Source of the DNA: Albidovulum sediminis
GTDB lineage: Bacteria > Pseudomonadota > Alphaproteobacteria > Rhodobacterales > Rhodobacteraceae
Reading direction: 5' to 3'
NCBI RefSeq assembly: GCF_025380365.1
Contig: NZ_JAOCQF010000001.1
Span: forward strand, 868,001-932,000
DNA length: 64,000 bases
Positions 16,386 through 52,179 of this stretch are shown here, piece after piece (position 1 is the stretch's first letter; every line of letters starts with the position of its first letter). The notes under the pieces are model-generated. The model was not told the DNA's origin, made no database searches, and saw nothing but the letters and a program-made list of their open reading frames with translations. Made by a program: the position numbers and the translations under genes.

Positions 16386-17093
16386 ATGAGAATCCTGTTG
16401 GTGGAGGACGACCCGACCACCTCGCGCAGCATCGAACTGATGCTGACGCACGCCAACCTCAACGTCTACTGCACCGACCTGGGCGAGGAGGGGGTGGATC
16501 TGGCAAAGCTCTATGACTACGACCTGATCCTTCTCGACCTCAACCTGCCGGACATGAACGGCCATGACGTGCTGCGCCAGTTGCGGATGGCCAAGGTGGA
16601 CACGCCGATCCTGATCCTGTCCGGCGCGGACGACACCGAAAACAAGATCCGCGGCTTCGGCTCGGGCGCCGACGACTACATGACCAAGCCCTTCCACCGC
16701 GAGGAACTGGTGGCGCGCATCCACGCGATCATCCGCCGCTCCAAGGGCCACGCGCAGTCGGTCATCCGCACCGGCAAGGTCTCCGTCAACCTCGATGCCA
16801 AGACGGTCGAGGTGGAGGGCAAGGCGGTGCACCTGACCGGCAAGGAATACCAGATGCTGGAGCTTCTGAGCCTTCGGAAGGGCACCACCCTGACGAAGGA
16901 GATGTTCCTCAACCACCTTTACGGCGGCATGGATGAACCGGAACTGAAGATCATCGACGTCTTCATCTGCAAGCTGAGGAAGAAGCTGGCCGAGGCGACG
17001 GGCGGCGAAAGCTACATCGAGACGGTCTGGGGCCGCGGCTACGTCCTGCGCGAGCCGCAGGCGGGCGAGCGGCGCGTGGCCATCGGCGCCTGA
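16386..17093 (+). CDS. ctrA: Cell cycle response regulator CtrA
   Basis: OmpR-type response regulator that in alphaproteobacteria governs the cell cycle or, in Rhodobacterales, motility, gene transfer agents and late cell-cycle genes. The receiver domain (residues 1-118) has the acidic pair E7/D8/D9, phosphoacceptor D51 in [15 protein letters not shown] in LILSGADD and K in [10 protein letters not shown]. The winged-helix domain follows ([20 protein letters not shown], then [13 protein letters not shown]). The 235-aa length and near-invariant sequence make the assignment secure. It is preceded by sciP. Confidence 0.97.
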
Positions 17094-17133
17094 GGGGCGG
17101 CACCCTCTGGACCTCGGACGCCGCGCCGCCTAA

Positions 17134-21395
<4,262 letters not shown>

Positions 21396-21417
21396 TCTTC
21401 ACCTTTCGTTCGCGGAT

Positions 21418-21459
21418 GTTCTCACATAGTTCTTTACAAACCATGAACGATATGAGAAC
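21418..21459 (+). promoter_or_regulatory. Two inverted SOS (LexA) boxes
   Basis: GTTCTCACATAGTTC (21418-21432) and GAACGATATGAGAAC (21445-21459) are each exact matches to the alphaproteobacterial LexA box GTTC-N7-GTTC, the second on the opposite strand, centres 27 bp apart. They also form a 16-bp imperfect inverted repeat (two mismatches per arm). A -35-like TTTACA (21433-21438) lies exactly between them, though no good -10 is visible. The boxes end 27 bp before the start of the 40-aa ORF. Confidence 0.75.
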
Positions 21460-21486
21460 AAATAAGCAACTCAGGTGGAGGTTCCG

Positions 21487-21609
21487 ATGAAATTCGATCT
21501 GAAATCCGTTCTGGTCCGGTCTTCCGGCACGCTGGCGCAGGACGCCGCAGGCCTGATGTCGCTGGTCGTCATGCTGATCGTGGGCCTGCACCTGCCCGGC
21601 CTTTTCTGA
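21487..21609 (+). CDS. SOS-box-controlled small membrane protein (40 aa)
   Basis: ATG at 21487 with a strong GGTGGAGG ribosome-binding site five bases upstream. The protein begins MKFDLKSVLVRSSGTLAQDA and continues into one hydrophobic span (LMSLVVMLIVGLHLPGLF) reaching the last residue. The N-terminal half is polar and slightly basic, so it should stay cytosolic. Two LexA boxes directly upstream predict induction by DNA damage. Caulobacter SidA (29 aa, LexA-controlled, inner membrane, inhibits division) is a precedent for the logic, but I see no sequence resemblance that would justify the name. Function unknown. Confidence 0.7.
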   Translation: MKFDLKSVLVRSSGTLAQDAAGLMSLVVMLIVGLHLPGLF

Positions 21610-21731
21610 ACTGCCTCGCGGTTTTCCACCCGGTGGCGCCCATCCCCGGCGCCAGACTGCCTGTCCGGTGCGGCCCGTCCCCCCAAGACGCGCCGCCGCC
21701 CTTGCCGGGACCATCGGAAAGATCGCTGCCT

Positions 21732-21766
21732 GCCGCCGCCGTCGACCGACGCGCGGCGGCTTTTTT
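21732..21766 (+). terminator. Rho-independent terminator
   Basis: GC-rich hairpin (GCCGCCGC...GTCG at 21732-21744 against CGACGCGCGGCGGC to 21760) followed by six T (21761-21766). It ends the + strand transcript of the 40-aa gene. Its T run overlaps the stop codon of the convergent IscU-like gene. The 120 bp between the small ORF and this hairpin contain no ORF I can support. Confidence 0.7.
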
Positions 21767-51276: not shown

Positions 51277-52179
51277 ATGGTAAATCACGCGCTCATGTCG
51301 ATGACGGGCTTCGCCGAGCGCCGGGGCGCCGGGGCGGGGGCCGACTGGGTCTGGGAGATTCGCGCCGTCAACGGCAAGGGTCTGGACCTTCGCCTGCGCC
51401 TGCCCGAGGGGATCGAGGGGCTGGAACAGGCCGCACGGGCGGCGGTGACCGCGCAGGTGGCGCGCGGCAACGTCACGCTCACGCTGAAACTCGCGCGCGG
51501 GGCCGAGGCCGGCGCGCCGCGCGTCAATGCCGCGGGCCTTGCGGCGGCGCTGGATGCGCTGGCCACGGTGTCGCAGGTCGCCGCGCAACGGGGGATCGAG
51601 CTTCGCCAGACCGCGGCCAGCGACATCCTGATCCTGCGCGGCGTTCTGGAAACCGGCGCGGCGGAGGAGGATACCGGCCCGCTTCTGGCGGCCCTTCTGG
51701 CCGACCTTGACGCGGCGCTCACGGCCTTCAACGCCATGCGCGCGGCCGAGGGGCAGGCGCTGGCCGGCGTCATCGCGGGCCAGATCGCGCGGGTTGCCGA
51801 GCTTGCCTCGGCGGCCCGCGCGGCCGCCGAGGCGCGCCGGCCGCTGATGGAACAGGCGCTGCGCGACAACCTGGCCCGCGTCCTTGCCGGCGCGGCCGAG
51901 GCCGACCCCGCGCGCGTCGCGCAGGAACTGGCGCTGCTGGTGGTGAAGGCCGACGTGACCGAGGAACTGGACCGGCTGGCCGCCCATGTCGCGGCGGCCG
52001 GACGGCTTCTGGCCGAAAAGGGCGCGGTCGGGCGCAAGTTCGACTTCCTGATGCAGGAATTCATGCGCGAGGCGAACACGCTCTGCTCCAAGTCCGGCAA
52101 CGCCGATCTGACGCGCATCGGGCTTGACCTCAAGACCGTCATCGACCAGATGCGCGAACAGGTTCAGAACGTGGAATGA
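51277..52179 (+). CDS. yicC: YicC family protein (probable endoribonuclease)
   Basis: 300 aa with the YicC N-terminal block [13 protein letters not shown] and [20 protein letters not shown]. The conserved C-terminal block [33 protein letters not shown], corresponding to DUF1732, closes the protein. E. coli YicC has been described as an endoribonuclease. AAGGA six bases upstream fixes the ATG at 51277. It overlaps gmk by four bases, the usual yicC-gmk pairing in alphaproteobacteria. Confidence 0.93.

What the first reader, a model, noticed from the sequence alone, without database searches (positions are those of the whole stretch)
21418..21609. 40-residue membrane protein under two inverted SOS boxes: candidate DNA-damage-induced cell regulator
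Directly after recG, two exact GTTC-N7-GTTC boxes (21418-21432 on +, 21445-21459 on -) flank a -35-like TTTACA. A strong ribosome-binding site and a 40-aa ORF with a polar N-terminus and one C-terminal membrane span follow. Alphaproteobacterial LexA is known to bind this motif, and Caulobacter SidA shows that a tiny LexA-controlled membrane peptide can stop division. This ORF does not look like SidA, so it may be an independent solution. The box match is seen directly; the role is inferred.
Basis: partly seen in the sequence, partly recalled or inferred. Interest (0 to 1): 0.85.

Follow-up and report, generated by a model that had tools for sequence, protein, structure and literature searches.

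The report
SOS-controlled membrane micropeptide with RNA tail
Just behind the DNA-repair gene recG, many bacteria of one marine and freshwater family keep a tiny gene, apparently switched on by DNA damage, for a 40-residue membrane protein whose message also carries a conserved folded RNA tail; it is a candidate for the damage-induced cell-cycle brake of this family, which still has to be tested.

Summary
Both GTTC-N7-GTTC boxes and the 40-codon ORF exist. The ORF is a real gene under purifying selection (median dN/dS 0.107, 261 pairs), matched in 152 of 198 sampled family genomes. The 50 loci inspected (30 best, 20 weakest listed) all lie behind recG. The promoter is rigidly conserved: direct box, TTTACA, then an inverted GAAC-N7-CAAC site exactly 38 bp on, in 100 of 110 loci. 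The same box stands before lexA (30/30) and recA (28/30), so LexA control is very likely.

New here: the 3' untranslated region is a conserved, covarying RNA (closing helix, three hairpins with CUGCC/CUGUCC loops, terminator). Its covariance model hit 54 of 198 genomes, once each, always at this locus. It matched no Rfam family. The window's own copy is divergent: it has the same fold plan but only a weak model score.

Best reading: a LexA-repressed inner-membrane checkpoint peptide that works like SidA (relatedness untested), on an mRNA that may double as a regulatory RNA. Division arrest and RNA function are inferred.

The parts
19308..21395 (+). recG (upstream neighbour, same direction)
   Evidence: ORF, start placed at the MSRPAIL methionine; RecG similarity just upstream in 30 of 30 loci and 20 of 20 weak-hit loci
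21408..21411 (+). conserved extra GTTC half-site, 6 bp before box 1
   Evidence: 93-98% per base in the distinct operators
21418..21432 (+). LexA box 1, GTTCTCACATAGTTC
   Evidence: direct box in 30 of 30 and 107 of 110 loci
21433..21438 (+). -35-like TTTACA abutting box 1
   Evidence: CTTTAC conserved 93-100% per base, final A 67%
21456..21470 (-). conserved second, inverted LexA-like site GAAC-N7-CAAC
   Evidence: 100 of 110 loci at exactly +38 from box 1
21477..21481 (+). GGAGG ribosome-binding site
21487..21609 (+). 40-aa ORF: polar N-terminus, D-x-x-G core, one C-terminal membrane span
21611..21732 (+). conserved structured 3'-UTR RNA (divergent copy)
   Evidence: fold z -3.94 (stretch 21608-21766 including the terminator); best match of model R2, 22.0 bits, in a locus not used to build R2; no match with R1
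21732..21766 (+). intrinsic terminator
   Evidence: fold; terminator-like end by a lenient pattern in 107 of 110 loci

Best explanation
A LexA-repressed single-gene transcript. In undamaged cells LexA sits on a direct box abutting the -35 and on an inverted site 38 bp further down, shutting the promoter (inferred from the sites). DNA damage frees it, and a message of roughly 300 nt makes a 40-aa single-span inner-membrane peptide, N-terminus inside. The peptide most likely docks by its conserved helix (D-x-x-G core, L30, L34, P37) onto an integral membrane partner, best guess the late divisome FtsW/FtsI/FtsN, and delays division until repair is done. The structured 3' UTR stabilises the message or acts as a regulatory RNA of the same response. 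Shown by computation: conservation, coding, operator sites, RNA structure. Inferred: LexA binding, membrane insertion, division target, RNA role.
For: Protein matched in 152 of 198 family genomes, the own one included. Of 20 of the 46 unmatched genomes, 17 have recG; 13 of those 17 carry a divergent 38-47 aa version of the same plan (picked by eye) with at least one exact box, while the other 4 have neither. The 20 weakest listed matches: 20 of 20 behind recG, 18 of 20 with a box. Box 1 in 107 of 110 loci, followed by GAGAAC in 104, at 21 bp in 103 of the 104; inverted GAAC-N7-CAAC at +38 in 100 of 110. Composite operator pattern in 158 of 198 genomes, reversed control in 26 (some of the 158 lie elsewhere, e.g. 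at recA). Same box before lexA 30/30 and recA 28/30. dN/dS median 0.107 in 261 pairs, each below 0.5. N-terminal part (D19 left out) net positive in 90 of 100 ORFs. D-x-x-G in 109 of 110. AlphaFold: one helix, residues 2-34, mean pLDDT 81. RNA. SulA in 0 of 100 family genomes.
Against: No expression, binding or phenotype data. Division inhibition rests on analogy only. No clear -10 hexamer. No relative in Pfam, NCBIfam or PDB to lend a function. 4 of 17 recG-bearing unmatched genomes lack the locus, so it is not universal. A LexA-controlled membrane peptide could equally be a depolarising toxin.
Confidence: 0.45

Rival explanations
1. A membrane-depolarising SOS peptide of the TisB/DinQ kind that lowers the proton-motive force and growth, with the structured 3' UTR controlling its translation or decay.
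For: Single hydrophobic span under a two-sided operator; long structured 3' UTR, as in type I toxin messages (recalled).
Against: Fixed position behind recG and no match in the plasmid or phage collections, unlike mobile toxins; own ribosome site and own 3' UTR pair no better than mismatched ones (own minus expected +0.66, standard error 0.30 kcal/mol, 70 loci), so no hok-like fold-back; conserved polar D-x-x-G core. Antisense RNAs were not sought.
Confidence: 0.2
2. A damage-induced regulator of another membrane machine (a protease, a respiratory complex, a transporter or the CtrA phosphorelay), not of the divisome.
For: Small conserved helices often regulate large membrane proteins (recalled); a ctrA-like gene, ligA and recG lie just upstream (names recalled).
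Against: No result points to a partner; the Caulobacter analogues SidA and DidA act on division (PMC4211646, passages).
Confidence: 0.25
3. The RNA is the main product: an SOS-induced small RNA with C-rich loops, the ORF being secondary.
For: Each of the seven modelled helices has pairs with two-sided changes; CUGCC and CUGUCC far above approximate dinucleotide shuffles (170 v 64.6; 78 v 11.7; 70 loci).
Against: The ORF is under strong purifying selection and is recognisable in more genomes than the RNA model, 152 v 54 of 198 (the RNA search used filters that lose weak matches).
Confidence: 0.1

Closest known systems
SidA of Caulobacter crescentus
   Same: Tiny inner-membrane peptide under LexA in an alphaproteobacterium (29 aa, interacts with FtsW; PMC4211646, passages)
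   Different: 40 aa here; similarity not tested; behind recG in 29 other-family genomes (the best-scoring loci of 114 genomes) there was 1 box and no box with a membrane ORF
DidA of Caulobacter crescentus
   Same: Small single-span division inhibitor induced by damage (PMC4211646, passages)
   Different: 71 aa and SOS-independent; ours carries LexA boxes
TisB / DinQ of Escherichia coli (recalled)
   Same: SOS-induced single-span membrane peptides with control at the RNA level
   Different: No fold-back pairing found here; fixed chromosomal place; conserved polar core
CcaF1 - CcsR1-4 of Rhodobacter sphaeroides (recalled; papers not held)
   Same: Stress-induced small ORF followed by RNA with C-rich loops in the same group of bacteria
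   Different: Loops here are CUGCC/CUGUCC; CCTCCTCCC in 0 of 107 tails; LexA rather than heat-shock sigma control
sX13 sRNA (Rfam RF02232)
   Same: Best-scoring Rfam match in the window stretch, below threshold
   Different: 19.3 bits against a gathering score of 50, E 0.18: not a member

Membership tests
LexA (SOS) regulon of this family | GTTC-N7-GTTC operator overlapping the promoter, as at lexA and recA | tested here: met
LexA (SOS) regulon of this family | LexA-dependent induction by DNA damage | not testable with these tools
   needs RNA-seq or a binding assay
SidA | sequence similarity to SidA | not tested
   SidA sequence not in hand; lengths differ (40 aa; 29 aa)
SidA | interacts with FtsW and blocks division | not testable with these tools
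   needs two-hybrid and microscopy
SulA | Pfam PF03846 domain | tested here: not met
   no Pfam family for the ORF; PF03846 in 0 of 100 family genomes
Type I toxin of the hok kind | own 3' UTR sequesters own ribosome site | tested here: not met
   own pairing no better than mismatched, 70 loci
Type I toxin (TisB/DinQ) | antisense RNA antitoxin | not tested
   no search for antisense transcripts or promoters was made
Any curated protein family | Pfam or NCBIfam match | tested here: not met
   Pfam: window ORF and 30 members; NCBIfam: window ORF only
Any Rfam RNA family | score over the gathering threshold at this locus | tested here: not met
   window stretch and 10 loci; all listed matches are below threshold
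CcsR/cuckoo RNAs | CCUCCUCCC loop motif (recalled) | tested here: not met
   0 of 107 tails

The most novel reading that the evidence does not exclude
One LexA-controlled transcript with two working products: a membrane checkpoint peptide and, in its 3' UTR, a cloverleaf-like small RNA whose repeated CUGCC/CUGUCC loops reprogramme other mRNAs (or soak up an RNA-binding protein) during DNA damage: a bifunctional SOS RNA conserved across a large part of one bacterial family.
Probability: 0.35. Interest if true: 0.88.

Novelty: new variant of a known kind. Interest (0 to 1): 0.74.

Why it matters
Rhodobacteraceae-type bacteria are abundant in the sea and include model phototrophs (recalled). Two paper searches aimed at SOS division inhibitors listed none for them, and SulA was found in 0 of 100 family genomes. 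A single conserved locus now gives a direct candidate. The conserved RNA tail raises the further possibility that the damage response of this family includes its own RNA regulator. Both ideas can be tested with one deletion and separate ORF-stop and RNA-loop mutants.

Tried and rejected
Homologues outside the family: a class-wide profile search of 385 genomes gave E below 1e-12 in 5 genomes, all own-family (how many own-family genomes were sampled is not shown); the matches in 7 other genomes (E 5e-4 to 8e-3) lie in open frames of 290-969 codons and were taken as chance. recG downstream regions of 29 other-family genomes (30 loci read of 114 genomes searched): 1 box, no membrane ORF by eye. 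Plasmids and phages: no match (with window DNA, with one relative's protein). Hok-like fold-back: rejected. RNA as part of the convergent iscU-like gene: rejected, since L003, L017 and L029 have the RNA but no iscU hit in the fetched flank. RNA on the other strand: unlikely, G-U 75 cells against A-C 30. Rfam matches to Ysr141 at other places of some loci, up to 31.3 bits against a threshold of 196, ignored. Other exact boxes of the window: 29440 lies inside overlapping long ORFs, 52156 at the end of one ORF and just before the next, 60510 not examined; taken as chance, untested. Against my reading: model R1 does not find the window's own RNA, nor any in 144 of 198 genomes.

Full report
Observation. 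The sequence described is there. GTTCTCACATAGTTC lies at 21418-21432 (+) and GTTCTCATATCGTTC at 21445-21459 (-); the window holds 5 exact GTTC-N7-GTTC matches where 1.68 are expected, the own genome 140 against 60 for the reversed pattern. TTTACA follows box 1 directly, then GGAGG and an ATG at 21487; the 40-codon frame ends at 21609.

Which bacteria. That the family is Rhodobacteraceae is inferred: named records (Ruegeria, Seohaeicola, Cognatishimia, Pseudohalocynthiibacter) share contig lengths with fetched genomes (206793, 289467, 394892, 401128).

Is the ORF a gene? In 198 family genomes, the own one included, the protein is matched in 152. The 30 best loci, the own one included, lie directly downstream of recG on the same strand; so do the 20 weakest listed matches, 18 of 20 with an exact box. 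Of the 46 genomes without a match I examined 20: 17 have recG; 13 of the 17 have, by eye, a more divergent 38-47 residue protein of the same plan in the same place, each with at least one exact box, and the other 4 have no box in the 600 bp read. For 90 full-length ORFs, the 261 pairs at 75-97% nucleotide identity with synonymous differences below saturation (others dropped) give a median dN/dS of 0.107, each below 0.5; variability is highest at codon position 3 (0.552 against 0.341 and 0.196, 72 sequences). T15, D19, L30, L34 and P37 are invariant in 30 aligned members; a D-x-x-G core is kept in 109 of 110 loci. The last 21 residues are hydrophobic, the N-terminal part (D19 left out) is net positive in 90 of 100 ORFs, and AlphaFold gives one helix, residues 2-34, mean pLDDT 81, consistent with N-in, C-out insertion (inference).

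Is it under LexA? In 30 family genomes, GTTC-N7-GTTC occurs within 400 bp before the matched start of lexA in 30 and of recA in 28, so the motif is the SOS operator of this family. Before the small ORF an exact direct box occurs in 107 of 110 loci within 150 bp; in the other three (L243, L246, L261) the spacing is one base shorter. 104 of 110 are followed by GAGAAC, 103 of these at 21 bp. The 110 loci hold 104 distinct sequences and 92 distinct proteins; 80 of them are the best 80 of 180 from a search that favours Ruegeria-like relatives. Consensus: GTTCRCAAATGTTCTCAAAAAGTTCTTTACA-N13-ATGAGAACAAARGGKCAACA. Genome-wide the composite pattern is found in 158 of 198 genomes and its reversed control in 26; some of the 158 are other places such as recA promoters. 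Two sites on either side of the promoter suggest tight repression (inference).

The RNA tail. After the stop codon, loci share invariant C-rich motifs and changing helices. On a sequence-only alignment of 24 chosen loci RNAalifold finds 30 pairs, 14 with two-sided changes; 57 cells change on both sides against 18.8 +/- 3.0 in shuffles, 0 of 500 reaching it, and sliding the partners destroys the pairing. With a covariance model from 15 of these (R1) aligned to 53 matches, two of them off-locus and kept, 30 of 31 pairs show two-sided changes and the covariation score is 0.425 against 0.147 shuffled (this alignment is fitted to the structure). Architecture: closing helix P1 with a one-sided internal loop, P2 (loop CUGUCCCA), P3 (loop CUGCCU), P4 (loop UGCCUC), then an intrinsic terminator. 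In 198 whole genomes R1 hits 54, once each; 53 start 3-75 nt after the ORF match and 1 (G151) lies behind the operator. Six of the 54 genomes (G005, G031, G038, G073, G087, G106) supplied seed sequences. The window's own tail is not hit by R1, but it folds with the same plan (-77.7 kcal/mol, z -3.94) and is the best match of the broader model R2, from whose rows it was absent (22.0 bits, next 13.5); another relative absent from the rows scores 74.3 bits (L176). CUGCC and CUGUCC are 2.6- and 6.7-fold above approximate dinucleotide shuffles in 70 tails; their complement GGCAG never occurs (4.8 expected), nor GGACAG (only 0.8 expected), as if the loops were kept free for a partner. No Rfam family reaches its threshold in the window stretch or in 10 loci.

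How it most likely works. LexA holds the promoter shut; damage releases a short message for a membrane peptide. SidA (29 aa, LexA-controlled, acts on FtsW) and DidA in Caulobacter (PMC4211646, passages) make the late divisome the likeliest target, at a little under even odds. A depolarising peptide or another membrane partner is not excluded. The RNA tail could protect the message or act in trans; its multiple C-rich loops favour a base-pairing or protein-binding role (inference).

Known or new? Pfam, NCBIfam and PDB sequences hold no relative. Ten paper searches (listings only) showed no title or abstract describing it. In the Dinoroseobacter LexA study recG has 0 occurrences in the main text (PMC6473078, passages). 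The terms recG and LexA have 0 occurrences in the main text of the Ruegeria and Paracoccus sRNA papers (PMC4809877, PMC5107571), but their supplementary tables could not be opened. A 2010 survey of structured RNAs names a Rhodobacterales motif, SAM/SAH, found upstream of metK, which is a different element (PMC2864571, passages). Outside the family neither the protein nor a box with a membrane ORF behind recG (0 of 29) was found. I rate it a new variant of a known kind, with a more novel bifunctional-RNA reading open.

Noticed in passing
16386-21395: A response regulator that looks like CtrA, then ligA and recG (names from recall of these proteins), lie directly upstream of the small ORF, putting a cell-cycle regulator and repair genes next to the SOS gene.
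   Followed up: no
L126 (G105 recA locus) and other recA loci: In a number of family genomes the box before recA is accompanied by a further inverted GTTCTC half-site, seen as GTTC-N7-GTTC ... AAAAAGAGAAC, for example G105:C19:303296-303338.
   Followed up: partly
L149 (G033): An AT-rich relative with a 1.9 Mb, 74% complete assembly keeps a very divergent 40-aa version behind recG with the box GAACATATAAGGAAC.
   Followed up: partly
52156-52170: Exact GTTC-N7-GTTC (-) at the end of a yicC-like ORF just before a gmk-like start (names recalled); probably chance.
   Followed up: partly
L144, L145, L146, L148: Four family genomes with divergent recG (62-67% identity) lack box and ORF there: lineages from before the gene arose, or losses.
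   Followed up: no
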